DNA from: Candidatus Leucobacter sulfamidivorax | GTDB lineage: Bacteria > Actinomycetota > Actinomycetes > Actinomycetales > Microbacteriaceae | Assembly (NCBI GenBank): GCA_016771945.1 | Contig: QZLF01000001.1 | Coordinates: 887,447-951,446 of the forward strand | Reading direction: 5' to 3' | Length of the DNA stretch: 64,000 nt | Shown here: positions 22,562-45,413 of the stretch, one piece after another | How the letters are laid out: the number at the start of each line of letters is the position of its first letter | How positions within the stretch are numbered: the first letter of the stretch is position 1 | Made by a program: the position numbers and the translations under genes | The notes under the pieces: model-generated | Told to the model about the DNA's origin: nothing | Seen by the model: only the letters and a program-made list of their open reading frames with translations | Databases searched by the model: none

Positions 22562-22771
22562 CCATTCGAGTCACTGCCGAAACGGTGTCCTGCGCTGCCC
22601 TCGCGAAGAGGTTCGATGTGCGCTCGCCCGATCCGGTCCTCACACGCCTCTCCGACTCTGCGCGAGCGGGGGATCGCGACACGCCCTATCTCAGCTTCTC
22701 CCGCCGATCAAGGGTCTGTTCCCTCGCGATCGTTCGCATCATGCTGATGCTGTTCACGATCGGAGGCCCCC

Positions 22772-27020: not shown

Positions 27021-27354
27021 CCTGCGCTGGAAGTATCCGCTGCTGGACTCCCAATAGTTGGGAGGCCGCGGAACTCTTGACGGTGGTGGAAATTTTCCCG
27101 GACCGTGAAGCTCCTCTCTTGGAGCTAACCCTCTGCTTCGTCTCATCCTGACCACGCTCAGCGTCGTCAACCGCAGAAGCTGCTTCGATGCCCAGCGCGA
27201 TCTTCATCACGCCCTGCGACTCCGCGAATCTCACGCCTGTGAAACGCTGCCCCTCGATTCCCCGTTGCTGCCCGACAAATGATTCATGGACGTATGCCAC
27301 CGATGGTGGGGCGTGCGCACCTCTCTCATGAGACGACTCGTGAGGAGGCTCGAG

Positions 27355-30300
27355 ATGAAGGGTGGTGTGATCCTGTTCCGGGGCACCGGTGCCGCGGCGC
27401 GCCGCTACTTGGAGTCGGACAGGTCGACCGCCGACGAGTACTACTTGGAGGGCGGTACCGCGCTCGCGGAGTTCGCCGTGAGCGACCATGACGGCGAAGT
27501 CATCGAAACGAGAACGCTCGATCCGGAGAGCTACGCGGCCTGGGTCGACTGGATCGATCCGATCACCGGCACGTCGATGGGAACGCCCCGAGCGGCAAGC
27601 GACAGGTCGAAGGAGTCGCCGCGCTTTGCGGAGATGGTCATCAACGCACCGAAGTCGCTCTCGATTGCCGCTGCTTTGCATCCGGAAGTCTCTGACGCGC
27701 TTGATGCGGCGCAGCAGTACGCGGCAGAGGAGATTCGCCGCTGGCTCGCGGAGCACTCAGTGACACGGGTCGGCCGGCGGAACGCACGCGAGATCGTGCC
27801 GGTGCAGCAGTTGCAGACGGTCACCGTCGCGCACAAGACCAGCCGGGCTGGCGACCCGCACCGGCACATCCACTTTCAGGTCGGCACACGCGTCTACGCC
27901 GCGGGCAAGTGGCGCGGCCTCGATACCGCGGCGCTGTTCAAGCAGCAGGGTGCGATCCGCGCACTCGGCACCGCGGTCATCGCCGCGCACCCGCAGCTTG
28001 CCGCAGTGCTCGACCAGCACGGCCTCACCCTCGACTTGGCGACCGGTGAGGTGGCAGAGCTGGAGCCGTTCAACGCGGTCATGTCGAAGCGGGGCGCTCA
28101 GGTCGAGCGCAATCTTGCCCGCTTCGAAGCCGAGTGGGAAACAGCCCATCCAGGCGAGGAACCTGGCCCTGTCGTGCGGGCGAGATTGAAGGCGAAGGCG
28201 TGGGAACACGAGCGGCCGGGAAAGAAGCCCGCAGTGCTCGGCAGCGAAGCCGGCTGGCGCGCCGAGCTCGAGAACGCCGGCTACATCCAGAACCTGCCCC
28301 GCGCACGGCGCGCTGCACCCGTCGCGCTGGACGAGTTGCATATCGAGGAGATCGCCTCGCGTGCGCTCGACCGCTGCGCCGCAGGAGCGTCGGCGTGGAC
28401 GATGCACACGGTGCGCGAATACGTTACGAGAATCACGACCGAGCATGGCGTGCAAGCCGAGCCAACGGACTTGCGCGAGTTCGTGCAACTCGCGACGCAG
28501 CTCGCTGCGGAGAATTGCTTCTCCGTGCTCCCGCCCGACACACCGACACCGGAACACGTCGCGCATCTCACATCGCTACGAGTGGTTGCGGTAGAGACGG
28601 AGCTGCGCGACCTGCTCACCGCACGCGCGGAGAGGTCCATCGAGCCTGCCCCGGATGTCCAACAGCTCGCTGCGCGGGTGAGGCTGGATGACGATCAGGA
28701 ACACGCAGCATCCGCCGTCGCATCCGTCAACCCACTTGTCGTGATCGAAGGCGCGGCCGGATCGGGCAAGACCACGATGCTCAAGACTGCCATCGCCGCG
28801 ATAGCGTCGGAGGGCCGCTCGACGCGAGTCGTGACACCGACGAAGAAGGCCGCTGACGTTGCGGCCCAAGAACTCGGCATCCCCACCGACTCCGTTGCCG
28901 CGCTCGTCTACGCACACGGGTTCCGGTGGAACAGCGACGGCGTGTGGACACGTCTGCGACCGGGCGACACTGATCCAGAAACCGGCGGCACGTACCGAGG
29001 GCCAGCGGTGGAAGCACGGCTCGTGAAGGGGGAACGGATCGTCGTCGACGAAGCTGGAATGCTCGACCAGGACAGCGCGCTCGCACTATTGCGCATCGCC
29101 GACGAAGCCGGAGCAACCATCGCACTCGTCGGCGACCGCGCGCAACTCCCCGCGGTCGGACGCGGCGGTCTGCTCGACTTCGTCACCCGTCTCACTCCCG
29201 CTGTCGTGGACATGACCAGTTTGCACCGCTTCACTGATGACGCCTACGCGACTCTCACTCTCGAACTGCGGCACGGCCGCAACCCCGCCACGATCTTCGA
29301 CAAGCTCAACGCGCTCGGGCTCATCAAGCTGCACGAGAACGACGACGACATGCAGGAGGCCATCGCGAAGACTGTGAGCCCGGAGGACGCGATCACCGCC
29401 GCGACGAACGACGAAGCACGGACGCTGAACGAACGCATCCGCGTTGAGCGCATCAACCGTGGCGAGGTCGACGACCTGCGAACGGTGTGCGGTAACGACG
29501 GGCTCCCCATCGGCGCCGGAGATGTGATCCAGACCCGTCGCAACGAGAGCACGCTCAGCGTCGCGAACCGGCAGACCTGGACCGTGCAGCACGTGGGCGA
29601 GGACGGCGCGCTGAGCGTCGTCGAGACCGTCAACGGCCGGAAGCAGCAGCGCACTGTGACACTGGCCGCGGAGTATACGTCCGAGGATGCGCACCTGGCT
29701 TATGCCGTCACCGCCTACGGCGTCCAGGGCGCGACAGTGAACGCTTCGCACACGGTGCTCTCCGACGTGCTTGACGCCGCTGCCGTCTACGTTGGCATGA
29801 CCCGCGGTCGAGCGACGAACACCTTGCACGTCGTCGCCACCGACCTCGACGATGCGAAGCAGCAGTTCGTCGAAGCACTCACTCGAGACCGTGCCGACCG
29901 TGGCCTGGAAGACGCCACCGAACGCGCCCGCCAGGCCGTTGCAGACCTCGTCGCGGAAGGGCCTGTGTCGATCGTGAGCGCGGAGCGCGACCGGATCGTC
30001 GAGCGGATCGCGAAGGCTGACGCGGAGCGAGAGCGCTTGGTGTCAGCAGCCGCCACGTTGCGTGACCAATCCGAGCGGCACAAGGCCGAGTATGAGCCGC
30101 AGCGCGAGCTGGCGGCAGCCGCCGATGCGAAAGTCACCGCACTTCTCGCGAGTGTTGTGGAATCGCTTGCCCAGGAAGCAGCGACGGACGGAGCTGAGTT
30201 CCTGGCCGCGCAGCAGGCTGCATATACAGCACACCGCGCGAAAGCGAACGCACCCCGTTTCCGAAAGCGCTCGGCTACCCGCACTGCGAAAGACGCAGAC

Positions 30301-30792
30301 GCCCGCCGAGAGGAGGCAGAGCAGATCGTGCACGGCAGATGGCAGAGCATTCCGCACAGCGAGAGTGGCCTCCCCGCGTGGGCGAAGGCAGTCGCCCAGC
30401 GTCAGGCCGACCGCGTGCCCGAGGTCATCGAAGCACGCGAGGAAGCTGCGCAGGCCCACCAGAACGCCAAGGAGATCGCCGCAAGGCAGTCGAGAGAACA
30501 CACGGCGCTGAATGAGCGGGTGCTCGGCAACCGCCGGCCAAGTGCGGTCGCTGGGCGGGTGAATGCCCTGCGCGAGCAGGCCGCGCAGGATCGGCTCTAC
30601 CTCGCCCAACTTGATGCGCTCCCGCCAGATGAAGCGGTGCAGCTCGTCCGCGAGCGTGCCGCCCAGGACGTGGCCCAGCGTCTCGCCGGCGAGACGGCCC
30701 GTCGTGCCGAAGAGACACACGAAGGCCGCTTTGCGTGGACCCGGCACCGAGACAGCGACCCGCACCGGCCGCCTCCACGCCTTGGTTTGTAG
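27355..30792 (+). CDS. MobF family relaxase with helicase domain (TraA/TrwC-like)
   Basis: An 1145-residue conjugative relaxase-helicase. The N-terminal relaxase has tyrosines at Y18 and Y29-Y30, spaced like the two catalytic tyrosines of TrwC, and the metal triad in DPHRHIHFQV (H169, H171, H173). A RecD-like helicase follows: GAAGSGKTT with K472, VDEAGMLDQD, VGDRAQLPAVG and AYTAYGVQGAT-like motif (VTAYGVQGATVNASH). The last 300 residues are charged and helical, likely coiled coil. It would nick oriT and unwind the strand to be transferred. The ATG at 27355 has GGAGG six bases upstream, which decides it over an earlier start at 27286. Confidence 0.92.
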   Translation: MKGGVILFRGTGAAARRYLESDRSTADEYYLEGGTALAEFAVSDHDGEVIETRTLDPESYAAWVDWIDPITGTSMGTPRAASDRSKESPRFAEMVINAPKSLSIAAALHPEVSDALDAAQQYAAEEIRRWLAEHSVTRVGRRNAREIVPVQQLQTVTVAHKTSRAGDPHRHIHFQVGTRVYAAGKWRGLDTAALFKQQGAIRALGTAVIAAHPQLAAVLDQHGLTLDLATGEVAELEPFNAVMSKRGAQVERNLARFEAEWETAHPGEEPGPVVRARLKAKAWEHERPGKKPAVLGSEAGWRAELENAGYIQNLPRARRAAPVALDELHIEEIASRALDRCAAGASAWTMHTVREYVTRITTEHGVQAEPTDLREFVQLATQLAAENCFSVLPPDTPTPEHVAHLTSLRVVAVETELRDLLTARAERSIEPAPDVQQLAARVRLDDDQEHAASAVASVNPLVVIEGAAGSGKTTMLKTAIAAIASEGRSTRVVTPTKKAADVAAQELGIPTDSVAALVYAHGFRWNSDGVWTRLRPGDTDPETGGTYRGPAVEARLVKGERIVVDEAGMLDQDSALALLRIADEAGATIALVGDRAQLPAVGRGGLLDFVTRLTPAVVDMTSLHRFTDDAYATLTLELRHGRNPATIFDKLNALGLIKLHENDDDMQEAIAKTVSPEDAITAATNDEARTLNERIRVERINRGEVDDLRTVCGNDGLPIGAGDVIQTRRNESTLSVANRQTWTVQHVGEDGALSVVETVNGRKQQRTVTLAAEYTSEDAHLAYAVTAYGVQGATVNASHTVLSDVLDAAAVYVGMTRGRATNTLHVVATDLDDAKQQFVEALTRDRADRGLEDATERARQAVADLVAEGPVSIVSAERDRIVERIAKADAERERLVSAAATLRDQSERHKAEYEPQRELAAAADAKVTALLASVVESLAQEAATDGAEFLAAQQAAYTAHRAKANAPRFRKRSATRTAKDADARREEAEQIVHGRWQSIPHSESGLPAWAKAVAQRQADRVPEVIEAREEAAQAHQNAKEIAARQSREHTALNERVLGNRRPSAVAGRVNALREQAAQDRLYLAQLDALPPDEAVQLVRERAAQDVAQRLAGETARRAEETHEGRFAWTRHRDSDPHRPPPRLGL

Positions 30793-30954
30793 CAGATAAG
30801 CGACCGTGGGTATCAGTGGGGTCGCTGTTGGGATGCCACGACTCTGCCCAAGCGGCGCGGCACTCTATCGGCGTCGGTGACCGCCGGTAGCGTAAGACAC
30901 GGCACTATGAGCACAACTTAAGACGCGCCCTGCGGCGCAGAGGAGACCCACAGC

Positions 30955-32520
30955 ATGGCACGCGCCGCGAAGCCGAAACCGACGAAGACACTCGAGCAGA
31001 CCCTCTGGGAAGCTGCCGACAAGCTGCGCGGCAACCAGGAGCCGAGCGAGTACAAGCACGTCGTGCTGGGTCTGGTGTTCCTCAAGTACATCTCCGACCG
31101 CTTCGAAGAGCGACGGGCGACCCTCGAGGCTGAGCTCGCCGCGGAGGGCATCAAGCCGGAGCGGCTACCGGACTTCCTCGAAGACCGCGACGAGTACACC
31201 AGTCACAACGTGTTCTGGGTGCCGGAGCTGGCGCGATGGGGCTATATCCAGTCGGTGGCGAAGCAGCCCGAGGTCGGGCAGCAGATCGACCAGGCGATGG
31301 ATCTCATCGAGAAGGAGAACCCGTCGCTACGCGGTGTGCTGCCGCGCAACTACGGGCGCGACGGCCTGGACAAGCGGCGCCTGGGAGAGCTGGTCGACCT
31401 GATCGGTTCTATCGGCTTCACCGAGACCGACGATCACGGAGCCGACGACGTGCTTGGTCGGGTGTACGAGTACTTCCTCGGCCAGTTCGCGGGCAAGGAG
31501 ACCGGCAAGGACGCCGGAGCCTTCTACACGCCGCGTTCGGTAGTCAAGACGTTGGTCGAGATGCTGGAGCCTTACAGGGGCCGCGTGTACGACCCTGCTG
31601 CTGGCTCGGGCGGCATGTTCGTGCAGTCGGCCGAGTTTGTGAAGGCACACGGCGGCAAGCGCACCGACATCTCCGTCTATGGGCAGGAGTTCACCGACAC
31701 CACGTGGAAGCTCGCGAAGATGAACCTCGCGCTGCGGGGCATCGAAGCCGACATGGGGCCGCGCTCGGCTGACTCGTTCACCGATGACCTGCACCCGGAT
31801 CTGCGGGCGGACTTCGTGCTCGCGAACCCGCCGTTCAACGTCTCGGACTGGTGGGACGCGAAGCTGGACGGCGACCCGCGCTGGCAGTACGGCACCCCGC
31901 CGCAGGGGAACGCCAACTTCGCGTGGGTACAGCACTTTATCCACCACCTCGCGCCGAACGGAACCGCGGGCTTTGTGCTCGCAAATGGCTCGCTGTCCTC
32001 CAAAAGCGGTGGCGAGGGTGAGATCCGGCGGAAGCTAGTCGAGGCGGGTCTGGTGGACTGCATCGTGGCGATGCCCGACAAGCTCTTCTTCAACACCGGC
32101 ATCCCCGTCTCTCTCTGGTTCGTCTCAAAAGGCCGTGACGGCAACGGACATCGCGAGCGGCGCGACGAAGTGCTGTTCATCGACGCACGCAAGCTTGGCA
32201 CGATGGAGAGTCGTCGACTACGTGTGCTCACCGACGACGACATCGCGAAGATCGCCGGCACCTACCACGCCTGGCGCAACCACGACGGCGGCTACGAGGA
32301 CGTACCGGGCTTCGCGAAGGCCGCCTCGCTGGAAGAAATCACCAAGCACGACTACGTGCTCACACCGGGCCGATACGTCGGCACCGCCGAGGCCGAGGCA
32401 GACAACGAACCGATCGACGAGAAGATCGCGCGCCTCACGATGGAGCTGTTCGCCGAGTTCGAGCGCGGACGGGAACTCGAGGGCGAGATCCGGCGGCAGC
32501 TCGGGGGGCTTGAGCTGTGA
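30955..32520 (+). CDS. hsdM: Type I restriction-modification system, methyltransferase subunit
   Basis: A 521-residue HsdM. The N-terminal helical domain ([38 protein letters not shown]) is followed by the adenine methyltransferase: [20 protein letters not shown] (SAM site) and NPPF at residues 291-294 (catalytic). It forms M2S for host methylation and R2M2S for restriction. AGAGGAGA stands 9 bases before the ATG. First gene of a tightly coupled operon; its stop overlaps the hsdS start as GTGA. Confidence 0.96.
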
Positions 32521-33728
32521 GCTTCATGTTCTCCGAACTCATCGCCCGCGGCTCGATAATCGTCAACGACGGATACCGAACGAAACAGTCGGAGCTTTCA
32601 CCGACAGGCATCCCAATTCTTCGGGTAGCCGAGATCGGTGACGGGTTCCTCGCACCAAAATCTGAGGATCGCATCGACGAGAGCTTCCGACCGGCGATCG
32701 GCATCAAGATCTCTCAGCCTGGCGACGTATTGCTCACGACCAAGGGCACCGTCGGGCGACGTGCGATCGTGCCAGATTCTGGGGCTGGGTTCGCCTATTC
32801 CCCGCAGGTTTGCTTCTTTAGGGTGCTTGACAAGTCGATCGATCCGCAATGGCTCTATTACTGGCTTGGAGGACGCGAGTTCTGGGCTCAAGCAATAGGG
32901 GTCTCGGCACAAACCGACATGGCACCATACATAAGCCTGCGTGACCTACGAGCCATTGCTATCGAGTTGCCGACGATTGGGGAACAACGCGCCATTGCCG
33001 CGACGCTCGGCGCGCTCGACGACAAGACCGAGTCGAATCAGCGAACTATGCTGCTCCTATCTGAGCTGGTCAGCGCCGAGTTTGCGCGCGTAGTATCAGG
33101 ATCGGAAATTCCGCATGAATTTCTGGGTGACGTGACGACGACTACCAAAGGCCGATCGTACAAGAGCGCCGAACTCGAAGAATCCGACACGGCACTGGTA
33201 ACGCTCAAGAGCATAGACCGCAACGGTGGTTACAAGCGCGATGGTTTGAAGCCATACACCGGTATCTACAAGCCAGATCAAATCGTGCGTCCTGGAGAGA
33301 TCGTCGTCGCTCAAACTGATCTCACGCAAGGGGCCGAGGTGGTGGGACGTGGTGTCCGCGTACCCGAATCTGGCGAGTATCAAACACTCGTCGCGTCACT
33401 TGATCTTGCAATCGTGCGGCCCAAGGGCGATATGCCGGTCGAGTACCTCTACGGGCTGCTAAGTAGCGAAGCTTTCCGCCAGCATTGCCGCAGTCACGTC
33501 ACGGGTACAACAGTTCTTCACCTTGCCAAAGACGCGATTCCGAGCTGGCGGGCTCCAATCGCTGCTACGAACGATCAGCATGAGTTTGCAGTTACTGCGC
33601 GCGCATTGCTGACACGCGCAGACTTCCTTGGCAGAGAGAATGAGCGGCTCATCGCGCTCCGTGACTCGTTACTGCCAGAACTGCTGTCTGGCCGCATCCG
33701 AGTCCCGATTAAGGAAGCTGCACCATGA
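32517..33728 (+). CDS. hsdS: Type I restriction-modification system, specificity subunit
   Basis: A 403-residue HsdS with two target recognition domains (about residues 1-155 and 200-370), each ending in a conserved helix: [24 protein letters not shown] and the final [20 protein letters not shown]. Each domain reads one half of a bipartite target. Its base composition is lower in GC than the neighbouring hsdM and hsdR, as is common for fast-changing specificity genes. It starts at a GTG overlapping the hsdM stop and overlaps the next ATG. No frameshift is seen. Confidence 0.93.
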
Positions 33729-34459
33729 CAAGCCTCAACACTGAATGGGCGGTTCGTGAACTCGACCGTTTCATCGACATGACGGTGACCGAGCATACGA
33801 AAGAGCCAGGGCTTGTCGGCTTCTACGAGACTGCTGCTTCATCAGAGGAGATCACTCAGCAGCTACAAGTCGTAGAGATGATCGTCCGTCGTGTGCTCCC
33901 AATCGATGCGCTGTCTAACCTCGCACTGATGAGCGGCGCCACCGGAGAGTGGAAACAGGTGCGTCCGCTTTGCCTACGCGCGAAGTCGCTGCTGGAACGC
34001 AAAGCCGAGATCGAACAGAACCTCGGAGACGGCGCGCCAGAGATGTCGGCTTCCAAGATGCATCCGTGGATCTGGGACGGCGCCGCATCGCTTTGGAAGT
34101 CGGGGCACTTCCGAGAGGCCGTAGAGGGTGCGATTCGCAAGCTGAATGCCGAGACCCAGAATAAGCTCGGTCGCCGCGATGTAAGCGAGACTGACCTATT
34201 CAATCAAGCGTTCAGTGACCAGGAACCGGTCGCTGGGAAGCCCCGGTTGCGCCGCATGAAAGATGACGGGAGCAAGACCTTCAAATCGGTGCAGCGTGGT
34301 GCCCGCTCCTTCGCCGAAGGTGTCTTCGCGGGAATCCGCAACCCGCTTGCTCACGAAGCTGACCAGGAAATGCCCGAACAGCAGGCGCTCGAATACCTTG
34401 CGGCACTGAGCGTTCTGGCACGCTGGGTAGACGAGTCGACGCTGGAGGTCGCTCCGTGA
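33725..34459 (+). CDS. TIGR02391 (Ymh) family protein with HEPN-type motif
   Basis: A 244-residue protein of the Ymh/TIGR02391 family. The C-terminal segment [15 protein letters not shown] contains R205-N-x3-H210, the R(N)x4-H pattern of HEPN ribonucleases. It lies between hsdS and hsdR, overlapping both by 4 bp (ATGA and GTGA), so it is made in step with the restriction enzyme. Proteins of this family are often found in restriction or abortive infection loci. An RNase that acts when restriction fails or is inhibited is a plausible inferred role; no partner nucleotidyltransferase of the MNT type is adjacent. Confidence 0.85.
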
Positions 34460-37400
34460 GCGCGTTCAACGAGAACACCGTCGAGCTGGCGGCGCTGGAG
34501 TACTTCGCGGAGCTGGGCTACCGCACCCTGCACGGCCCGGACATCGCTCCTGGCGAGCCTGGGGCGGAGCGCGATTCCTATGAGGAAGTGTTTCTCTGGG
34601 GACGGCTGCGTGACGCGATCAGGCGGATCAATCCGGGGGCTTCCCCTGCCCTTGTCGACGATGCGATCAAGCGGGTGCGTCGTGCGGAGTCGCAGAGCCC
34701 GATCGATGAGAACTACCGGCTGCATCGGCTCATCACCGACGGCGTGCCGGTCGAGCATCGGGATGCAGACGGTGCGCTGCGCACGACACGGCTCTGGCTG
34801 GTGGATGTCGAGCAGCCGGAGAACAACGACTGGGTAGCGATCAATCAGTTTACGATCGTTGAGAATGGCAAGAACCGCCGGCCCGATGTCCTGGTCCTGG
34901 TCAACGGCCTGCCGCTGGCACTGCTGGAGCTGAAGAACCCAGCAGCGGAGCACGCGACGCTGAAGTCGGCGTGGAACCAGGTGCAGACATACCGGCAGGA
35001 CATCCCGTCGGTGTTCGTGCCGAACGCCGTAACCGTCATCTCCGATGGAACCTCGGCCGCGATGAGCAGCTATGCGGGGGCGTTCGAGCACTATGCCCCG
35101 TGGAAAACGATCGAGGGGCGCGAGGTTGTGAGCGACCGCCCCGCCCTTGAGGTGCTGATCAAGGGAGTGTTTGAGCCGAAGCGGTTCCTTGACATCGTCC
35201 AGAACTTCGTCGTGTTCAGCGACGAGACGGCGACGGACAAGGCCACCGGGCAGCCGACGAGGGTGCTGGTGAAGCGTGCGGCGAAGTACCACCAGTACTG
35301 GGCGGTGAATGCGGCTGTCGAGTCGACTGTGCAGGCGTCCCGGCCGGATGGTGACCGTCGTGGTGGTGTGGTCTGGCACACCCAAGGATCGGGCAAGAGC
35401 TTCGAGATGGTGTTCTATGCCGCGAAGATCATGCGCGATCCTCGGATGGCGAATCCGACGCTGGTGTTCATTACCGACCGCAACGACTTGGACGACCAGC
35501 TGTTCGGGGAGACATTCGCCCCTGCCCGTATCCTGCCGGAGACCCCGGTGCAGGCCGCGACACGTACTGACCTGCGGACGAAGTTGAAGCGCGCGTCGGG
35601 TGGCATCGTCTTTACGACGCTGCAGAAGTTCGCTCCTGGTGAGGATGGCGATGCCAACCCAGTGCTGACGGATCGTCGCAACGTCGTCGTCGTGGCCGAC
35701 GAAGCGCATCGAAGCCAGTACGGCTTCGGAGAGACGCTGGATCGTCACGGACGCTTGCGCTCAGGTTTGGCGAAGCACATGCGAGATGCTTTGCCCGGCG
35801 CCACCTACCTCGGCTTCACCGGTACACCGATCGAGTCGAACGACAAGTCTACCCGCTCGGTGTTCGGTGACTACGTCGACGTCTACGACCTCACGCGTGC
35901 GGTCGAGGACGGCGCGACGGTGAAGATCTTCTACGAGTCGCGCCTGGCGAAGATCGATCTGTCCGACGATGACCTTGCCGCGCTCGACGAGCTGGCGGAT
36001 GAGATCACCGAGACCGTCGAGGAGGATGCCGCTACGGCGGCGAAGTCCCGCTGGTCGCGCTTGGAAGCGATCGTCGGCGCTGACTCCCGTCTTGAGCTGA
36101 TCGCCCGGGACATCGTCGAGCACTGGGAGAAGCGGCGCGAGGCGCTGTTCGGTAAGGGCATGATCGTCACGATGAGCCGCCGCATCGCGGTGCGGCTCTA
36201 CGAGAAGATCGTCGCTCTCCGCCCCGATTGGCATTCTGACGACCCGGACAAGGGCAAGATCAAGGTCGTCATGACCGGCTCAGCGGCCGACCCGGCCGAG
36301 TTCCAGCCGCACATCCACTCCAAGGACGTCCGCAAAGACCTCAAGCTCCGGGCGAAGAACCCCGATGATGAGCTCGAGCTGGTGATCGTCCGCGATATGT
36401 GGCTGACCGGCTTCGACGCTCCGTCGATGCACACGATGTACGTCGATAAGACCATGCAGGGCGCCGGGCTCATGCAGGCCATCGCCCGGGTCAACCGCAC
36501 CTTCCGCGACAAGCCCGGTGGACTGATCGTCGACTACATCGGCGTGTTCGCGAACCTCCAGGCGGCGCTCCAGGAGTACTCGCCCTCCGACCGTGACCAG
36601 GCAGGCGTACCGATCGACGAGATGGTCGCCGTCATGCTGGAGAAACACGACATCATCCGCGGGCTGCTTCACGGCGTTGATTACAACTCCTCACCCTCGC
36701 TCACCGCCTCGCAGCGCCTGACGGAGTACGCCAAGGTGCTCGACTTCGTCATGGCCGACCCCGACCGCACCAAGCGCTTCAACGACCAGGTGCTCGCGCT
36801 CGCCAAGGCATTCGCGCTGGCTGGTGCCCGTGACGAGGCTGCCGCGATCCGTGATGACGTTCGCTTGTTCACCGACGTACGTGCGGCGATCCTGAAGATC
36901 CAGAACCCCGACTCGGGGCGTGGAGGCTCCGGGGCAGTCGAGATCGACACGGCGCTCGGGCAGTTGCTCAACGAGGCAGTCGCTGCTGACCAGGTTGTCG
37001 ACATCTACAAGCTCGCTGGCGTCGAGACACCGGAGCTGTCAATCCTCAGCGACGAGTTCCTCGACTCCCTCGCGGAGAAGGACAAGCCGAACCTCCAGGT
37101 AGGGCTGCTGCGGCGTCTTCTCAATGACCAGATCCGCACCGTCCAGCGCACCAACCTCGTACAGGCGCGGAAGTTCTCAGAACTGCTAGACGAGGCGATC
37201 AACAGGTACACGAACCGATCGCTGACGACGGCGGAGATCATCGCGGAGTTGGTGAAGCTCGCCAAACAGATGCGCGATGACCAGAAGCGGCACGAGGAGC
37301 TGGGACTGTCCGCGGCTGAGATCGCACTGTATGACGCAATCGTGCAGAGCGACGCTGCTGTGATGGAGATGGGCGACGACACCCTCAAGAAGATCGCCGT

Positions 37401-37590
37401 CGACCTCGTCTGGGCCGTCCGCACCAGCGTTGTTATCGACTGGGACCAGAAGGAGAGTGTTCGTGCTTCGATGCGATCGAAGGTGCGGCGTCTGCTCGCC
37501 AAGTACGACTACCCGCCAGATGCGGAGGCCAAAGCTATCGAGCTAGTGATCGAGCAGGCGGAACTTTTTGCCAAGGAGGAGGCCGCTTAG
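34456..37590 (+). CDS. hsdR: Type I restriction-modification system, endonuclease/translocase subunit
   Basis: A 1044-residue HsdR. The N-terminal nuclease is PD-(D/E)XK, with D144 in RRPDVLVLV and E158-x-K160 in LLELKNP. The SF2 translocase follows: WHTQGSGKS with K314, ADEAH at 414-418, GFTGTPI and QAIARVNR. The C-terminal helical domain (from about residue 830) docks to the methylase. It pumps DNA and cuts when translocation stalls. It starts at a GTG overlapping the Ymh stop. All catalytic residues seem intact, so the system should be active. Confidence 0.96.
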
Positions 37591-37592
37591 CG

Positions 37593-40500
37593 ATGAATCA
37601 AGACTCGCAAGATTCTCCCCAGTGGAACCTCATCCCGCTCACCCCTGAGTATCTCGAAGCTGAGCACAGTGACTACGTCTCGGCACTTCAGGCTGCACTT
37701 GAAGACGATGAGATCCGCAACATCGCGCTGTCCGGCAACTACGGCGTCGGCAAGAGCAGCATCTTACGGGAACTCGGGAAGCGCCTTGACGGCCGCGTCG
37801 TCGAACTCTCGCTGTCGACGCTTGCACCGATCGAGGTATCAAAGCTCGATGAGTCGGTACCTATTCAGGCGACGACCCCGACCAATCGCATCCAGCAGGA
37901 GATCGTTAAACAGCTGCTCTACCGAGAGGATCCCAGCAAGACTCCTGCATCGCGGTTTCGCCGGATCGAACGCTTTCAGTGGCGGAGAGAACTCGGCACT
38001 GCCGCCCTGTTGGGCCTCGCCGTTGCCGTCGTATTCCTGCTGACCGGGTGGACCGCACAGATCGCGGCGACCTTCACGGCGCTGAACGATCTCGGGGTCT
38101 GGGCACACCTGATCGTCTGGGGTGCCGCGGCGATCGCCGTGCTGATGGTGCGCTGGCTGTTCTACGGGAAGCTCCGCATCAAGCAGTTCTCGGCGGGTGC
38201 GGCGACGGTCACCCTCGATGACAACTCCGTCTCATACTTCGATCAGTACCTCGACGAGATCGTCTACTTCTTCGACGTGACGGATCGTGACGTCGTGATC
38301 TTTGAGGACATCGACCGCTTCAACGACTCACACATCTTCGAGACGCTGCGCGCGCTCAATACTTTGCTCAACGCTTCGCCTCAGATCGAGAAGCCGATCC
38401 GCTTCATCTATGCGATCAAGGACAGCATCTTCGACCGAATCGGGCTGGAATCGGAAGGCCGCAAGCTCGAGACAGGCGTGCTCGCAATCGAGGATCCGGC
38501 GCAAGCCGAGGCGGTCCGTGCGAACCGCACCAAGTTCTTCGATCTCGTGATTCCGGTGGTTCCGTTCATCACGCATCGCAGTGCCCGGAATCTGGCGACC
38601 CAGTTGCTGGGCAAGATCGAGCACAAGGTGGCGCCGGAACTGCTCGATCTGGCTGCGCAGTACGTCCCTGACATGCGGCTGCTGAAGAACGTCCGCAACG
38701 AGTTCATCGTCTTCCGCGAGCGAATCTTCTCAGGCGACGGTGAGCAACTCGACCTGAGCGAGACCGACCTGTTCGCGATGATGCTCTACAAGAGCACGCA
38801 CCTCACGGACTTCGAGACGATCCGGCTCGGCAAGAGCAATCTGGACACTCTCTACAAGCTCAGTCGCGAGCTGGTAGCCGAGAACATCAAGCGGATCGAG
38901 GGCGAGCGTCGAGTGCTTCGACAGCGGCTTACGCGGATCAACGGAGCGGCAACTCGAAGCGCTCAGCTGGGAGATCACGTCGTGGCGCACGTCCAACGGG
39001 TTGTGGCTGCTGTCGGGTACCAGCGACAGAATGCGACGTATGTATTCGAGCGTCAGGGTAAATCCGTTGATGACCTCAAGAGCGTGCAGTTCTGGACGAG
39101 CTTCGTCGTGGCTGATGGCGACCCCGCGCTCCAGTGGCGAAACAATTACGGGCACACGCTGTCATTCACTCGGAGTCACCTCGCGACGGAACTGGGCGAT
39201 CCGCTAGACGCGGACAGTTGGAGCGAGGCGGATCGGAATTCGCTGAATGAACAGATCGAGGACAAGGCCGAGGAGATCAAGTTCCTACGGAGCGCCGACC
39301 TTGGAGACCTCGTGAGGCGTCCCGAGTTCCTTGTCACCCACGAGAAGACGGCGCGGTCGCTCACTTCTGTGGCCGAGGAACTCCTGAAGCCTGGGCTCGC
39401 GTACCAGCTGGTGCGTGCGGGATATCTCAACCGCAACTTCACGCTGTACACGTCGACCTTCCACGGCGACCGAGTGAGTCCGGCGGCAACGAACTTCATC
39501 ATCCACCACGTCGAGCGGGACCTGATGGATGAGCATTTTGAGCTCGGCCCGGAGGATGTCGACGCCGTTGTGCGGGAGCGAGGCAAGAGCGCGCTGAAAG
39601 AACCCGCGCTCTACAACATCGCGATCCTCGACCGTCTCCTTGCGGCCGACATTGACGCAGCCGACATCATGATTCGCTCGCTGGTTGGCTTGGGGAAGAG
39701 TCAGACGCAGTTCTTGCAGGCGTACCTGAATGCCAGTGAGCAGCGCTCACAACTCGTCCAGCGGTTTACGACGATGTCGTCGAGAGCGCTCGCCTACCTC
39801 GTGAACGAAGCGGAGCTGGATGAAGCTTCGCAGCTGTCGCTGGTGGATGCCGTCCTGGCGAACCCTTCGACATCCGCGCAGCGCACGGACGCGGGAGTTG
39901 TCGACTACCTGCGGACGCACTATGCAGAGTTTCCGACCCTCACCTCCGATACAACGACGTCTGCGCAAGCCGAACGCGTCGGAACGCTCTTCAGTGAGAC
40001 AGGGATTGTCGTGTCCGCGCTGAAGCCTCTCGGAGCAGGCGTTCGAGCATCGTTCGTTTCACGCAGTCTGTATGACATCACGCATGAGAACCTGACCATC
40101 GCGATTGGCAATGAGGAGACCGTGGCGCTCGACGTCATCCGATCGGCGGACAAGACGGTCTATGGCTATCTTCTTGAGCACGTGGGTACGTATCTGGCTG
40201 CGGTCGAGGGCTCCTCTGCGACGGTCGACACGCGTGAGCAGTTCATCGCTGTGCTTGAGGATCTACTCGAGCAAGGAGCGCCTCGTCTGGCCGACGTGGT
40301 TGAGCGTGCTGCGCCAGGTTGTCAGGTCGTCGATCTTGGTGCCATCTCCGAGGGAGCGTGGCCGGCGTTGGCCTTGCATCAGCGGTTCCCGGCAACGTTC
40401 AACAACGTGAGCCGATATGTTGTCGCTCTTGGAGTCGACGTCCACCTCGCTCCGCTGCTGGCCGCAGCAGGCATGATCACCGAGGTTGCGTCGGCTGACG

Positions 40501-41225
40501 AGGATGAGAAAATCACGTTGGCGACCACGATTCTCGCGGCACGTGAGCAGCTGCCAGCCGCAACGCTGCGCGCGGACCTTGTTGCTAGCTTGGAACTGGG
40601 CAGCTACCTCGATGCTGGGGAGATTGCGGCCGAGACGGGCGACTTGTTCGCGTTGCTGCTCAAGCACGATGTCATCTCGGACACCGCCGAGTCATACGAG
40701 CACCTTGCGACAACTGATTGGCCAACGCGAAGGGCGCTCATCTGCGAGTCAGCGAATTTCGCAACCTACATGACGCCGGAGCTGGTGCAGCCGGATCTCG
40801 CGGCGGTTCTGGCCGACGATGAAATCGATGACGCGATCAAGCGGCTGATCGTTGAGCGGTCTGCAGCGTACGCCGAGGTGGCTGGGCAACGCGGGCTGAA
40901 TGAATTGGCGCGACTCGCTGTGCAGTATGGGTGCACCATCCCATCCGCCGTAGTGCGGAAGATGGCGCAGGGCGGCGCTCCAGCGCGGCACATCGTGATC
41001 CTTCTCGAACCACACCTCGGCGCTCTTGCGCGCGGAGACCTCTTCGCAATCCTGCAGGGGATGGGCGGTGAGTACTCGAAGCTGACAACCGTGGGACGAA
41101 CCGCTCTACACATCTCAAACACCCCAGCAGACCGCGCGCTCCTTGAATGCCTGAAGGCGCACGGAATCGTCAGTTCGTATGATCCGGATGTCTCGCCTAT
41201 CAAGGTGAACAGGAAACACAAGTAG
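37593..41225 (+). CDS. YobI family membrane-anchored P-loop ATPase
   Basis: A 1210-residue protein starting 2 bp after hsdR. The NTPase has Walker A SGNYGVGKSS with K54 and a Walker B-like VVIFEDIDRF at about 234-243, typical of YobI/KAP-like STAND-type ATPases. Two hydrophobic segments at about 135-153 and 171-191 are inserted in the ATPase, so it is probably fixed to the inner face of the membrane. The 800-residue C-terminal half is helical, repeat-like and unrecognised. KAP-like NTPases are known in phage defence; coupling to a type I operon suggests a second-line or sensor role, which is inferred. Confidence 0.8.
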   Translation: MNQDSQDSPQWNLIPLTPEYLEAEHSDYVSALQAALEDDEIRNIALSGNYGVGKSSILRELGKRLDGRVVELSLSTLAPIEVSKLDESVPIQATTPTNRIQQEIVKQLLYREDPSKTPASRFRRIERFQWRRELGTAALLGLAVAVVFLLTGWTAQIAATFTALNDLGVWAHLIVWGAAAIAVLMVRWLFYGKLRIKQFSAGAATVTLDDNSVSYFDQYLDEIVYFFDVTDRDVVIFEDIDRFNDSHIFETLRALNTLLNASPQIEKPIRFIYAIKDSIFDRIGLESEGRKLETGVLAIEDPAQAEAVRANRTKFFDLVIPVVPFITHRSARNLATQLLGKIEHKVAPELLDLAAQYVPDMRLLKNVRNEFIVFRERIFSGDGEQLDLSETDLFAMMLYKSTHLTDFETIRLGKSNLDTLYKLSRELVAENIKRIEGERRVLRQRLTRINGAATRSAQLGDHVVAHVQRVVAAVGYQRQNATYVFERQGKSVDDLKSVQFWTSFVVADGDPALQWRNNYGHTLSFTRSHLATELGDPLDADSWSEADRNSLNEQIEDKAEEIKFLRSADLGDLVRRPEFLVTHEKTARSLTSVAEELLKPGLAYQLVRAGYLNRNFTLYTSTFHGDRVSPAATNFIIHHVERDLMDEHFELGPEDVDAVVRERGKSALKEPALYNIAILDRLLAADIDAADIMIRSLVGLGKSQTQFLQAYLNASEQRSQLVQRFTTMSSRALAYLVNEAELDEASQLSLVDAVLANPSTSAQRTDAGVVDYLRTHYAEFPTLTSDTTTSAQAERVGTLFSETGIVVSALKPLGAGVRASFVSRSLYDITHENLTIAIGNEETVALDVIRSADKTVYGYLLEHVGTYLAAVEGSSATVDTREQFIAVLEDLLEQGAPRLADVVERAAPGCQVVDLGAISEGAWPALALHQRFPATFNNVSRYVVALGVDVHLAPLLAAAGMITEVASADEDEKITLATTILAAREQLPAATLRADLVASLELGSYLDAGEIAAETGDLFALLLKHDVISDTAESYEHLATTDWPTRRALICESANFATYMTPELVQPDLAAVLADDEIDDAIKRLIVERSAAYAEVAGQRGLNELARLAVQYGCTIPSAVVRKMAQGGAPARHIVILLEPHLGALARGDLFAILQGMGGEYSKLTTVGRTALHISNTPADRALLECLKAHGIVSSYDPDVSPIKVNRKHK

Positions 41226-41309
41226 AGGAGCGCTGACCGACCTCGTCCCAGCTGGAGCTCGAGAAGCCGCCCGATCGCTGGAGGATCACCCCGTGGGAGA
41301 GAATGAAGC

Positions 41310-42341
41310 ATGAGGTTTCGTACAGCTGAAGGGGCAAGCCACGAGGGACGCGACGGTTCAGGGCACGAGCGTTTTCGCGTGTCGATTCCGTTCGACGAGC
41401 ACGGCTTCTTTGGGCGGCAATGTCCCTCATGCATGCAGATCTTCCGGATGCATGGCGAGGACTATCACCACCTGCCTGACGACTTGCAGCTGACCTGTCC
41501 GTACTGCGGGCACGTCAGCGAGCACTCGGAGTTCATGACCGAGCAGCAGCGGGATCGGGTCATGCAGGTTGCGCGAGACGCCGCGCTCCAGATGGTCAGC
41601 GACGCATTCAAGGGCCTGTCGCGCCGATCGACTGGATCGAGCCGACGGGGTGGGGTCACGGTTACCTTCCGTTCCAAGCCGTTCTACCCGCGACCGCTTC
41701 CTGGTATCAACGAGGAGTCGCTGATCCGCGAGCGTCGGTGCGAGACGTGCGGTGTACGGTACGCGGTGTTCGGCGAGCATCGCTTCTGCCCGGTGAGCGG
41801 GCTCCTTGCGCCCGGTGATATTGCGGCTGACGCTCTCGCTTCGGAAGAGGCCAAGCTGAGTGCGCTCTCTGCCATTCCGGCCGACCAGATTCCAATCCTT
41901 CGCGAACAAGGCGTGTTCGAGAGGATCAATGTCGACGTGCTTGGTCGAGTCGTTGGTGCCGTAGAGGCGTGCGCGTCATCGGTGTTCAGGAACCATGCGC
42001 TGAACGCGGAGGCGGCCCTCCGCGGGAAGGGGAACGTGTTTCAGCGGCTCGATGACCTGGCCGGACTATTCCGCGACGCGTTTGGCGTCGAACTTGCCAC
42101 AGTTGACGGAGTTCGCTGGCCAGAGTTAGTGCGCTTGTGGGCAGCCCGGCACGTCCACACTCACGCGGGAGGGCTCGTCGATGATCGTTACCTTCGTGCC
42201 GTTCCAGCGTCTCGCCTTGCGGCCGGTCAACGAGTTGTGGTCACGGATGCCGATGCTCACCTTGCCATCCAACAGGCTCGACTGCTCTGCGACGCGATCA
42301 CTCTCGTCGGCGGAACGCAGGCGTCCGTGCCCTCCGCGTAG
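41310..42341 (+). CDS. Zinc-ribbon protein with C-terminal HEPN-like domain
   Basis: A 343-residue protein I cannot match to a named family. CPSC near residue 37 with CPYC near residue 64 forms one zinc ribbon; CETCGVRYAVFGEHRFCP near residue 145 gives part of a second. The C-terminal helical domain ends in RHVHTHAGGLVDDRYL: R280-x4-H285 followed by G and D/Y positions is the pattern of HEPN-type RNase or abortive-infection domains. It follows the YobI gene by 84 bp on the same strand and may be the last gene of the defence operon. Function in RNA binding or cleavage is an inference. Confidence 0.7.
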   Translation: MRFRTAEGASHEGRDGSGHERFRVSIPFDEHGFFGRQCPSCMQIFRMHGEDYHHLPDDLQLTCPYCGHVSEHSEFMTEQQRDRVMQVARDAALQMVSDAFKGLSRRSTGSSRRGGVTVTFRSKPFYPRPLPGINEESLIRERRCETCGVRYAVFGEHRFCPVSGLLAPGDIAADALASEEAKLSALSAIPADQIPILREQGVFERINVDVLGRVVGAVEACASSVFRNHALNAEAALRGKGNVFQRLDDLAGLFRDAFGVELATVDGVRWPELVRLWAARHVHTHAGGLVDDRYLRAVPASRLAAGQRVVVTDADAHLAIQQARLLCDAITLVGGTQASVPSA

Positions 42342-42389
42342 GTGGAAACCGGCGCGTGGCGCGAATCTTCCTAACTTTTCTCCGACCGC

Positions 42390-42762
42390 TCACTCCCAGG
42401 TATGGAGGCGGGGATTCCATCGCCTTCTTGCCGCAGAGGAAAGCATCGGGTCGGCAAAGCCCGCGACCGCCGAGAGAACGTCGGCAAACGCTGCTGGGAG
42501 CTCGCCTTCGCGGCGGGATCGTATGCGCCACGCACGGTATTTCTGCTGAGCCCGTTCGTTCATCGGCGCAAGCGTGGGCAACAGGGGTGCGAGTGTGACT
42601 TTGCGGTGCTCGGCGACGGTCTCGATAGATGTGCGGAGTTCGCCTGCGTCGAGCGAGTGAAGTCGGGTGAGGGTGTAGACGTCAGCGAAGTCGCGCCAGC
42701 GAGTGTTGGCAACGCCGCGGTCGACGGCGGTGACGAGCTTCTCAGCGAGCACCATCGTCAGC
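42390..42762 (-). pseudogene. AbiEii/AbiGii toxin gene, 3' fragment (split by IS21-type element)
   Basis: This is the C-terminal part of a nucleotidyltransferase toxin (LTMVLAEKLVTAVDRGVANTRWRDFADVYTL; K and the RWRDFAD segment are typical of AbiEii). It is separated from its 5' part at 45408-45940 by a complete insertion sequence. Removing the element and one copy of the 6-bp duplication rejoins ...GYPLT and MVLAEK in frame and gives a 299-residue protein. The fragment has an internal ATG at 42755 but no likely function. Confidence 0.9.
42757..42762 (+). repeat. Target-site duplication (left copy)
   Basis: GTCAGC, repeated at 45408-45413 on the other side of the IS21-family element. Confidence 0.85.
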
Positions 42763-42850
42763 TGTTTAGCCGATGGTTCGGAAAGCGCCTGTGTGAGGAT
42801 CGGAAAGCGTGGGCGCGACGGTCGGAAAGCGTGCCGCCGCGCCCGAGCGC

Positions 42851-43630
42851 CTATCCGGTGTGAGTATCTTCCGCGTTCTCGGCCGCGGTGTGGCGGCGCA
42901 TGTTGGGGCCGGCCAGTTGCACGATCTCGGCATTGGAAATGATCCGGTTCAGGATGGATTCGGCGATGACGGCGTCGTGGAGCGATTTGTACCAGTCTTC
43001 GGGATCGAACTGGCTGGTCACCGCGGTGGAGCCTCTGCCTTCGCGTGCGGCGAGGATGTTGAGAAGCTCGGCCGCGGTCTCGCTGGTGATCGGCGTCGTG
43101 AGGAAGTCGTCGAGCACGAGCAGGTCGCAGGAGTGCAATTCATTCAGGAATCGGAGCCGTGCGGGGTCTGTGTGATGGTGGACGGCGAGCTGGTTGGCGA
43201 GGTCGTCGAGCCGGTAGTACCGGGCGGTGTAGTCGCGTCGGCAGGCGGCGTGCACGAGCGCTTGCGCGAGGTAGGACTTGCCCACGCTGGAGGACCCCAG
43301 GACGACGAGATTCGTGGTGCGGTCGATCCAGTGGCATGCGGCGAGACGGGCCACGACCTCACGGTTCAGGCTGCGGCCTTCGAGGTAGCGGATGTCTTCG
43401 ACGCAGGCGGCCGGGTTCGGGGTGCGGGACGCCTTCAACAGCTTCATCATGCGCCGCTCGCCCCTGGCTGTGGTCTCTTGCTCGAGGGCGTGGCGGATCT
43501 TCTGCGAGAACGTCCATTCATCGAAGGTGGGGTCGTTGGCGATGTCGATGACGGCTTCTCCGAACGCGGTCATCCGCAACCGGGTGAACAGGGGCATGTC
43601 ATCGATGGTGAGGTGTTGGTCACGCATCAT
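42851..43630 (-). CDS. istB: IS21-family helper ATPase IstB
   Basis: A 259-residue AAA+ protein. VVLGSSSVGKSYLAQAL is the Walker A, DLLVLDDFLT the Walker B, and FNQ-like sensor region ends with RIISNAEIVQLAGPNMR. It assists IstA in target choice. Its ATGATG start overlaps the istA stop by 11 bp, the usual translational coupling. Confidence 0.93.
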   Translation of the reverse strand: MMRDQHLTIDDMPLFTRLRMTAFGEAVIDIANDPTFDEWTFSQKIRHALEQETTARGERRMMKLLKASRTPNPAACVEDIRYLEGRSLNREVVARLAACHWIDRTTNLVVLGSSSVGKSYLAQALVHAACRRDYTARYYRLDDLANQLAVHHHTDPARLRFLNELHSCDLLVLDDFLTTPITSETAAELLNILAAREGRGSTAVTSQFDPEDWYKSLHDAVIAESILNRIISNAEIVQLAGPNMRRHTAAENAEDTHTG

Positions 43631-45269
43631 CACCCTCGATTCCCTGGTCGCGGCCGATGAGGTTGTCGAGGCTGAACGCGCTGATTCCGGCCAGGTGAGC
43701 ACGGCTGGTATCCCGCCCGGCGGGTGGGCGCGACGACGGCGGAGTATCCGCTCTGGCCCAGGCCTCTGGGTCTGTGGTGGGTCTGGCGTTCTGCTCGGCG
43801 CGGATCGCCGCGATGGCATGCTTCACGGCGGTGTAGCTGATCTGCCGGTGGGGGTCACCGTCCGTGAGCCTTCGGCAGGCGAGCTCGAGGAGCCCACGGT
43901 TCCCGCGCTTTCCGAGGTCGAGGATATTCATGCAGGAGCGGAACCCCTGCGCCTCGATCGTCTTCGAGTCCAGCAGGCGGGTCAGGGCTGTCACGGTTCC
44001 CGGGCCTGCTTTCGCGGCTTGGCGGAGGAAGTAGGCGCGGGTCCAGAGCCCTGCCTGATCTTCAAGGTAGGCGGGCGCATGCCCAGGGTCGGTGACGTAG
44101 CGATTGCGATGCCTGCCGCGCTGGTGGGTGGCGATCACTTCCCCGTCGGCGAGGACGTCGAGTGTGTCACCGACGATCCGCACGTCCACGCCGAGACCGG
44201 CGAACGCGTACGGAACGGAGTACTTGATGGTGTCGATCTGGATATGCCAGTCGCGATGCACCTTCGCTTTCCGCCACGACACCGGCTCCCACCGCTGTTC
44301 GGGCAGCTCGAGCAGCGCCGGCTTCTCGTGCTCGGCGAACCACTCCCAGCGCGATCGCTGATCCCCGCGGAACGGGGTTCGGTGGTTGATCCATTCCACC
44401 CGCTCGGCGATCGCTTCGTTCAGGTCGTCGAGCGAGGCGAACGAGCGGTCGGCGAGGTAGTGGATGACCCAGTTCGTGACGACCTTCACGCCGGATTCGA
44501 CGTGGCCCTTGTCTCTGGGGGCCGCGGATCTGGTCGGGACCGCAGCGGTCCGGTAATGCTCAAGGAACCCACTGTAGGAGGAGTTCACGTCCCGGGCCCG
44601 TTCGCTCTTGCTGATCTGGTTCGACGCCGTCGATGCGTTATCGGGCACCACCAGCAGCGTGACGCCGTCGATGTATTCAAACGCTCGCCGGTGCGCATCA
44701 GCCCAGGCAGGGAACTTCTCATCCAGGCACCCGTACGCGAACACGAGCCCGGAGTAGGGCAGCGACGCCACGAACACCGACACCGCAGACACCTCACCGG
44801 AGATCGGGTCGACGATCTGCATCCGAGTGCCCGCCCAGTCGACCTGCATCGTATGCCCGGGGACGTGCTGGATCGGGGCGGTGAGATCATTGACTCGCAC
44901 GTGCTCAGCGACGATCTGGCAGAACCGTTCATACCCATAGTGGCCGCGGCCATCGGCAGCATCGACGTGCAGATACTGCGCCCACAACACCTTCAGCGGA
45001 GGCTTGTTCCGCCCCAGCCTCGCAGCGACCACCTTGTCGATATCGACCGGCACGAACTCGCCGGTCACGCTCTTGCGCCCGTCAGAGAACAACCCGTCAA
45101 CGTCTTCGCGTGAGAGCGCGTCGACCTGGCTGACAGCCGTCAACTGGTGTTCGTCGAGCACACGACGGACCTTCGCGATCGTACGCTGCGAGCACCCCTG
45201 CCTGGCAGCGATCTCGCGATACGGGACCTTGTCCAGCACAAGCCGCATCAACTGGCGGTAATCGGTCAT
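43620..45269 (-). CDS. istA: IS21-family transposase IstA
   Basis: A 549-residue DDE transposase. The N-terminal helix-turn-helix (VPYREIAARQGCSQRTIAKV) binds the terminal repeats. Catalytic residues are D144 in MQVDWAG, the aspartate of VVPDN and the glutamate of DKGHVES. Full length, no frameshift. Confidence 0.95.
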   Translation of the reverse strand: MTDYRQLMRLVLDKVPYREIAARQGCSQRTIAKVRRVLDEHQLTAVSQVDALSREDVDGLFSDGRKSVTGEFVPVDIDKVVAARLGRNKPPLKVLWAQYLHVDAADGRGHYGYERFCQIVAEHVRVNDLTAPIQHVPGHTMQVDWAGTRMQIVDPISGEVSAVSVFVASLPYSGLVFAYGCLDEKFPAWADAHRRAFEYIDGVTLLVVPDNASTASNQISKSERARDVNSSYSGFLEHYRTAAVPTRSAAPRDKGHVESGVKVVTNWVIHYLADRSFASLDDLNEAIAERVEWINHRTPFRGDQRSRWEWFAEHEKPALLELPEQRWEPVSWRKAKVHRDWHIQIDTIKYSVPYAFAGLGVDVRIVGDTLDVLADGEVIATHQRGRHRNRYVTDPGHAPAYLEDQAGLWTRAYFLRQAAKAGPGTVTALTRLLDSKTIEAQGFRSCMNILDLGKRGNRGLLELACRRLTDGDPHRQISYTAVKHAIAAIRAEQNARPTTDPEAWARADTPPSSRPPAGRDTSRAHLAGISAFSLDNLIGRDQGIEGDDA

Positions 45270-45407
45270 GAAGAATCATTCCTCCCACCCCACGAACACT
45301 CGTCGAAGGGTTGAGAGTCATCATCGAGCAGCCACACGCGCTACCCGATGCTTACACGCACGCTTTCCGATCTCTACACAGGCGCTTTCCGAAGCGTCGT
45401 CCTAACA

Positions 45408-45413
45408 GTCAGC
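45408..45413 (+). repeat. Target-site duplication (right copy)
   Basis: GTCAGC, identical to 42757-42762. Together they show simple insertion into the toxin gene. Confidence 0.85.

What the first reader, a model, noticed from the sequence alone, without database searches (positions are those of the whole stretch)
30955..42341. Composite defence operon: type I restriction plus HEPN (Ymh), giant membrane ATPase and zinc-ribbon/HEPN protein
hsdM, hsdS, ymh and hsdR overlap by 4 bp at each junction, the YobI ATPase starts 2 bp after hsdR, and the zinc-ribbon protein follows on the same strand. Such strict coupling means the accessory proteins are produced with the restriction enzyme. Restriction with two RNase-type HEPN proteins and a membrane STAND-like ATPase could be a layered system in which restriction failure triggers RNA cleavage or membrane action. 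I do not know this six-gene set as a described system.
Basis: partly seen in the sequence, partly recalled or inferred. Interest (0 to 1): 0.8.

Follow-up and report, generated by a model that had tools for sequence, protein, structure and literature searches.

The report
Restriction operon carrying swappable defence genes
A bacterial DNA-cutting immune operon carries an extra gene of a predicted RNA-cutting family and a membrane-ATPase defence gene; relatives show that these extras are exchanged like cassettes, and that the membrane ATPase is found attached to quite different restriction systems.

Summary
In detail: hsdM, hsdS, ymh and hsdR overlap by 4 bp at each junction, the ATPase starts 2 bp after hsdR, and a zinc/HEPN-like gene follows after 84 bp. 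The ATPase is a Tmn relative, a known anti-phage membrane NTPase. Ymh belongs to a published R-M-linked HEPN family.

The six-gene set was not found a second time. Relatives follow hsdM-hsdS-[X]-hsdR-[Y]-tmn-[Z]. X is ymh, another Abi-type protein, a BstXI-like nuclease or nothing; Y is nothing or a YgjP-like peptidase; Z varies. The zinc/HEPN-like gene was beside tmn in 0 of 80 other loci.

Most tmn relatives show no hsd genes nearby (8 of 80 do). Where they do, hsd genes lie on tmn's strand and upstream; one locus also has hsdR downstream. Linkage changes at least 7 times on a quick Tmn tree. Timonella and Gulosibacter share leader region and tmn at 90-93% DNA identity around distantly related restriction operons (HsdR 28.5% identical).

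Best reading: a mobile composite defence operon, restriction first, HEPN RNase and Tmn as back-up layers. Functional coupling is inferred, not shown. New variant of a known kind.

The parts
30837..30954 (+). leader of the operon (region directly before hsdM), shared with operons of a distantly related type I family
   Evidence: blastn 78-89% to L028/L044 (one record), L064, L045, L162
30955..32520 (+). hsdM, type I DNA methylase subunit, 521 aa
   Evidence: PF02384 7.8e-108, PF12161 8.7e-28; PADLOC MTase_I 2.9e-197; 95.6% aa identical to L162. Below the NCBIfam TIGR00497 cut-off, 159 against 243 bits
32517..33728 (+). hsdS, specificity subunit, 403 aa, GTG start, 4-bp overlap
   Evidence: PF01420 1.1e-7; 28% identical to HsdS of L162
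33725..34459 (+). ymh, HEPN-family protein, 244 aa, RNPLAH at residue 205; slot X
   Evidence: PF09509 1.8e-33; R205, N206, H210 invariant in 7 aligned proteins; PADLOC PD-Lambda-3_B 1e-8
34456..37590 (+). hsdR, type I endonuclease/translocase subunit, 1044 aa, GTG start
   Evidence: PF04313, PF18766, PF11867; 94-95% to L044 and L162
37593..41225 (+). tmn-like YobI-type P-loop NTPase, 1210 aa, two predicted membrane helices (about 134-152 and 168-186)
   Evidence: PF20693 6.5e-118; PADLOC Tmn 4.7e-52; hydropathy; G48, G53, K54, S55 and E238, D239, D241, R242 invariant in 12 of 12
41310..42341 (+). zinc-ribbon (PDC-M14A) plus HEPN-like protein, 343 aa; probably a separate gene
   Evidence: PADLOC PDC-M14A 2.7e-20; RHxxxH in the C-half invariant in the 4 proteins aligned

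Best explanation
This is a composite anti-phage operon on what looks like a mobile island of a Micrococcales genome. Its core is an apparently complete type I restriction-modification system. A HEPN-family protein (Ymh) sits in the hsdS-hsdR slot, where other genomes carry other defence-type genes, and a Tmn-like membrane NTPase is appended to hsdR with a 2-bp gap. Most likely mechanism: (1) HsdMSR methylates host DNA and cuts unmodified phage DNA. (2) Ymh is an RNase held quiet by the restriction complex and released when restriction is blocked or overwhelmed, as proposed for HEPN-R-M pairs by analogy with PrrC. (3) Tmn is a second, largely autonomous membrane-acting layer; its fast-changing C-terminal half is the likelier sensor and its conserved ATPase/membrane N-half the effector. 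Joint expression lets a phage that escapes restriction meet the other layers. The zinc/HEPN-like gene is probably an independent neighbour. Shown here: anatomy, open frames, gene packing, recurrence of hsd-tmn linkage, and exchange of the restriction module between a constant leader and a constant tmn. Inferred: every functional step, co-transcription and anti-phage activity included.
For: Families. Tight spacing; no + strand sigma-70-like promoter in 30600-42500, and the one + strand terminator-like site lies inside hsdR, counts no higher than in shuffles. hsd beside tmn in 8 of 80 loci. Counting any hsd hit of at least 150 aa, 9 of 80, all with hsd upstream on tmn's strand, 0 of 80 on the opposite strand (L053 also has hsdR downstream, L111 only a 330-aa HsdM-like piece about 9 kb away). 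In 7 of 8 linked loci the ORF before tmn is on its strand and ends within 60 nt (hsdR, hsdS, the YgjP-like gene or, in L071, a 96-aa ORF), against 10 of 70 unlinked loci (L052 and L105 not evaluated). The Tmn tree of 85 rows needs 8 changes of linkage, 7 forced by starred branches. L044 versus L064: 1.5 kb upstream 90.4% and tmn 92.9% identical DNA, but HsdR 28.5% and HsdM 29.5% aa. Third codon positions differ more than first and second in hsdM, hsdR and tmn (part printed before its error). The window Tmn is 83-99% identical to that of L045 in 100-residue blocks up to 700 and 38-62% beyond.
Against: No functional data. Most tmn relatives seen have no linked R-M operon, so physical coupling is not needed. 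0 of 20 hsdR loci fetched (from 105 of 248 genomes with a match; window and G172 not among the 20) carry tmn next to that hsdR. The linkage label is only weakly clustered on the tree (34 of 500 shuffles as low). L055 is loosely linked. The Ymh N-half does not track HsdS (L162-L054: 63% against 21%). Ymh scores below the NCBIfam TIGR02391 cut-off (34.0 against 39.45 bits). Structure predictions were too poor to test the HEPN folds (pLDDT 52 and 37).
Confidence: 0.6

Rival explanations
1. Passenger or recombination-arm model: tmn and the other extras are independent defence genes in a hotspot. The constant leader and constant tmn serve only as homology arms through which restriction operons are exchanged, and there is no functional coupling.
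For: The accessory set differs among the relatives read; most tmn are unlinked; L044/L064 shows exchange between two homologous arms; a published paper calls the hsdS-hsdR site a potential recombination hotspot (PMC12255303, passages read).
Against: hsd genes near tmn lie on its strand and upstream, except that L053 also has hsdR downstream, with overlaps or small gaps in 7 of 8, in two distantly related operon families. A neutral hotspot need not preserve orientation and spacing.
Confidence: 0.3
2. A true six-gene system in which restriction failure triggers two RNases and a membrane effector together.
For: All six genes lie on one strand, closely packed.
Against: No second example seen: ZnH beside tmn in 0 of 80 loci; G001 (L162) has a like leader, hsdM, ymh and hsdR (HsdR 95%) but a Schlafen/AlbA-type gene instead of tmn; Timonella (L044) has close hsdM, hsdR and tmn but neither ymh nor ZnH.
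Confidence: 0.07
3. Ymh and ZnH are toxin-antitoxin or addiction parts that stabilise the mobile island rather than defend.
For: Integrase, TrwC relaxase, IS21 and AbiE-type genes surround the operon.
Against: Ymh sits inside the hsd gene order in L051, L054, L162 and L193 too. No antitoxin partner was noticed beside either gene, but none was searched for.
Confidence: 0.08

Closest known systems
PrrC-type and HEPN-linked restriction (proposal in PMC3710099, passages read)
   Same: HEPN protein encoded with an R-M operon; Ymh (PF09509) listed there as 'In operon with R-M'
   Different: this Ymh has no fused ATPase domain in Pfam; control by HsdMSR is a proposal only; here a Tmn is added
Tmn, anti-phage transmembrane NTPase of E. 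coli
   Same: YobI/KAP-type ATPase with two membrane helices; 31% identity over 428 aligned columns of the N-part
   Different: the C-terminal two thirds give no convincing alignment; the E. coli Tmn on plasmid stretch L188 has no hsd gene beside it, this one is coupled to hsdR
Type I operons with embedded defence genes: TgvAB (PMC11411939), DarTG2/RptR island (PMC12255303); passages read
   Same: defence genes in the hsdS-hsdR region of a type I operon
   Different: other cargo; here tmn is also appended after hsdR
Gabija-Tmn pair (synergy cited in PMC12735699, passage read)
   Same: Tmn beside a second defence system
   Different: the partner here is type I restriction in the same gene row; synergy untested
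PDC-M14A (PADLOC candidate)
   Same: N-terminal zinc-ribbon domain of the sixth protein
   Different: here fused to a HEPN-like domain; elsewhere a separate short gene, beside a TIR gene (CAP12/Pycsar type) in 3 of 4 short homologues

Membership tests
Type I restriction-modification | HsdM, HsdS and HsdR subunits with their domains, open and contiguous (ymh inserted) | tested here: met
Type I restriction-modification | methylation and cleavage of DNA | not testable with these tools
Ymh HEPN family (PF09509) | Pfam match above cut-off and RxxxxH motif | tested here: met
   115.4 bits against 25; RNPLAH
TIGR02391 (NCBIfam model of the same family) | score above the curated cut-off | tested here: not met
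   34.0 bits against 39.45
Ymh HEPN family (PF09509) | HEPN fold | tested here: inconclusive
   AlphaFold pLDDT 52, helical only
Tmn | YobI/KAP-type P-loop ATPase with two membrane helices | tested here: met
Tmn | full-length similarity to E. coli Tmn | tested here: not met
   only the N-part aligns convincingly, so it is called Tmn-like
Tmn | anti-phage activity | not testable with these tools
   -
HEPN (sixth protein) | RxxxxH conserved in homologues | tested here: met
   invariant in 4 of 4 aligned
HEPN (sixth protein) | profile or fold match to a HEPN family | tested here: not met
   no Pfam HEPN hit; PDB profile search only one chain at E 0.52; model unusable
MADS (methylation-associated defence) | MAD2/MAD5 equivalog score | tested here: not met
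   46.5 bits against 720 and 52.1 against 400
Conserved six-gene system | same six genes in another genome | tested here: not met
   none among 80 tmn loci and 20 hsdR loci read

The most novel reading that the evidence does not exclude
Type I restriction operons of several families have repeatedly recruited Tmn as a dedicated membrane effector: restriction supplies an exchangeable self/non-self sensor, Tmn the constant back-up that fires when restriction is inhibited or overwhelmed, and the Tmn C-terminal half is a rapidly diversifying recognition region. The restriction module can be swapped while leader and Tmn stay.
Probability: 0.3. Interest if true: 0.75.

Novelty: new variant of a known kind. 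Interest (0 to 1): 0.5.

Why it matters
If restriction and Tmn are coupled, a classical restriction enzyme would be a front end for a membrane effector, extending the reported Gabija-Tmn synergy to one of the most widespread kinds of bacterial immunity (prevalence recalled). The pair Timonella/Gulosibacter is a natural experiment: nearly the same Tmn behind two distantly related restriction systems.

Tried and rejected
Six-gene system: rejected (no second example among the loci read). MADS: rejected on score. 'STAND-like': not supported, the family is YobI-type. Ymh N-half matched to HsdS: tested on 6 pairs, not supported. Structure predictions of the sixth protein (single sequence) and of Ymh (3 sequences) gave no usable model, so no fold search was run. 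PDB sequence searches gave nothing meaningful. PF20693 in a phylum sample gave little (7 of 396 genomes with a match, 3 over the cut-off). A viral-contig search for the sixth protein confirmed no relative; its alignment could not be used for such a search. Rfam found no family at gathering threshold in 30600-42900. Linkage of Tmn to type I restriction was not noticed in the listings (open-licence PMC only; titles and abstract starts, passages of a few papers). Wu 2024 (PMC11009048) and the 2026 Tmn preprint are not held; of the latter I saw only the title in a reference list.
Full report
What is there. Six same-strand genes at 30955-42341 are confirmed with exact junctions. hsdM/hsdS/ymh/hsdR overlap by 4 bp three times, tmn starts 2 bp after hsdR, and the sixth gene 84 bp after tmn. 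The frames are open, and the core domains are present. The genome (3.84 Mb in 11 contigs) is probably of the Microbacteriaceae: a same-family genome, G125, has a contig of the same length (400,324) as the Cryobacterium record L088, and Cryobacterium is in the Microbacteriaceae, order Micrococcales. An integrase (25548-26792) and a TrwC relaxase (27286-30792) lie upstream, IS21 and AbiE-type genes downstream.

What the parts are. The 'YobI ATPase' matches PADLOC Tmn (4.7e-52) in its N-part. BLASTP to an E. coli plasmid gene annotated 'anti-phage transmembrane ATPase' gives 31% over 428 columns and nothing convincing beyond. It has two hydrophobic helices, and its Walker-type residues are invariant in 12 of 12 aligned relatives (motif names recalled). 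Ymh is a PF09509 protein, though below the NCBIfam TIGR02391 cut-off; its family was described as HEPN, 'In operon with R-M', in PMC3710099 (passages read). The sixth protein joins a PDC-M14A zinc-ribbon domain to a C-terminal part with an RHxxxH that is invariant in the four proteins aligned. The three others, covering 88-97% of it, lie on plasmids of Miltoncostaea, Aliarcobacter and Emticicia; no hsd or tmn relative was detected in the 17-kb stretches read. In three of four genomes with only the short zinc protein (L041, L042, L043; not L040) the gene beside it encodes a TIR protein (CAP12/Pycsar type, Pfam-tested in L041 and L042, by similarity in L043). So this zinc module seems to change effector partners.

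Is it a conserved system? Among 297 genomes of the order 12 have a relative of the window Tmn; of those 12 the window, L028 and L033 have hsd genes before tmn. Eight of the 80 have under 4 kb upstream, so linkage could be missed there. Slot X: ymh in L051 and L054 and in L162 (G001, no tmn); an Abi_C/AbiJ-type gene in L055 and (no tmn) L164; a BstXI-like endonuclease in L044; nothing called in L045 and L064. Slot Y: a YgjP-like peptidase in L045, L051, L054 and L064, one sequence cluster, Pfam-tested in L051. After tmn: a Ppl-like protein in L044, an AAA_13/PDC-S06 protein in L045, other genes elsewhere. In L053 tmn itself lies between hsdS and hsdR. L055 is a loose case, with 1.5 kb and an opposite-strand ORF between hsdR and tmn. 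The zinc/HEPN-like gene is beside tmn in 0 of 80.

Why the hsd-tmn pairing may be more than island noise. With any hsd hit of at least 150 aa, 9 of 80 loci qualify; all 9 have hsd upstream on tmn's strand, none has hsd on the other strand, and L053 has hsdR downstream as well. In 7 of 8 linked loci the preceding ORF is within 60 nt on the same strand, against 10 of 70 unlinked ones; L052 and L105 had no gene called before tmn, and starts are longest-ORF starts. A quick tree of 85 Tmn proteins (window, 79 of the 80 loci, L091 left out as split, and L033, L182, L183, L184, L188) with 10 labelled as linked needs 8 changes, at least 7 by starred branches; shuffled labels need 9.6 on average and 34 of 500 are as low. 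The label 'unlinked' includes loci with short flanks. As far as the tree holds, linkage arose or was lost many times. Two main operon families are involved: family A (window, L044, L055) and family B (L045, L064, L051, L054), with best-segment HsdR identity of 25-29% between them (L053 is nearer to A, 46-47%), while Tmn of L044 and L064 are 92.6% identical. In DNA, L044 and L064 share a 1.5-kb upstream block with the leader (90.4%) and tmn (92.9%), but of the operon between only a 121-bp stretch (71%) aligns. The about 110-bp leader of the window also precedes family B operons in L064 and L045 and a family A operon without tmn in L162.

Variation inside the parts. Window and L162: HsdM 95.6%, HsdS 28.6%, Ymh 68.5%, HsdR 95.1%. 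Ymh N-half is 26-63% identical among five proteins while the C-half is 67-95%; in the 6 pairs where HsdS could be compared, N-half likeness does not follow HsdS. The window Tmn and that of L045 are 83-99% identical in blocks up to residue 700 and 38-62% after it. A variable C-terminal half fits a recognition role, which is inference.

Results against. In 248 order genomes 105 have an hsdR match; of 20 loci fetched, none has tmn beside that hsdR. Ymh-family genes occur at 27 places in 25 of 248 genomes, with hsdS or hsdR detected within 1.5 kb at 5 of 27, the window included. Of 7 plasmid records with a Tmn relative over at least 80% of its length three were read, and no hsd gene was detected in those 21.6-kb stretches.

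Mechanism and novelty. Restriction is the first layer; Ymh is the likely RNase back-up of the PrrC kind; Tmn is a membrane layer. PMC11846954 (passage read) says that Tmn's precise mechanism remains unexplored. [quoted passage not shown] PMC12735699 (passage) cites Gabija-tmn synergy. Embedded defence genes in type I operons are known (PMC11411939 and PMC12255303, passages). What I did not find described is the recurrent, orientation-true attachment of Tmn to several type I operons and the exchange of the operon under a constant leader and Tmn. It is a new variant of a known kind.

Noticed in passing
window 42390-45940: IS21 genes (IstB 42851-43819 and a transposase 43620-45269, - strand) appear to lie inside an AbiEii-type gene: AbiEii N-part at 45374-45940 and a possible C-part ORF at 42390-42755 (the latter by eye only).
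   Followed up: partly
window 41310-42341; L041 1596-2952; L042 8838-10267; L043 8828-10257: The PDC-M14A zinc domain occurs fused to a HEPN-like domain or as a separate gene beside a TIR gene (3 of 4 short homologues): a possible common adaptor with exchangeable effectors.
   Followed up: partly
window 33725-34459 and L051, L054, L162, L193: The N-terminal half of Ymh is far more variable than its HEPN half.
   Followed up: partly
L044 9986-13680 (same record as L028): tmn of Timonella has a frame break near its 3' end.
   Followed up: no
L039 9290-10470: The nearest zinc/HEPN-like relative in the order sample (G285) reads in two overlapping frames.
   Followed up: no
L043 9745-19900: The short zinc gene and its TIR partner lie about 2 kb from a type I operon on the opposite strand.
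   Followed up: no
L045 9243-9992, L051 9204-9935, L054 9103-9840, L064 9252-9989: A YgjP-like metallopeptidase gene sits between hsdR and tmn in family B operons.
   Followed up: partly
L053 8574-18818: In Methylobacillus tmn lies between hsdS and hsdR, with a 90-aa HSDR_N piece and a Schlafen/AlbA-type gene also in between.
   Followed up: partly
window 22490-22564: tRNA-Gln about 3 kb before the integrase; a possible attachment site was not tested.
   Followed up: no
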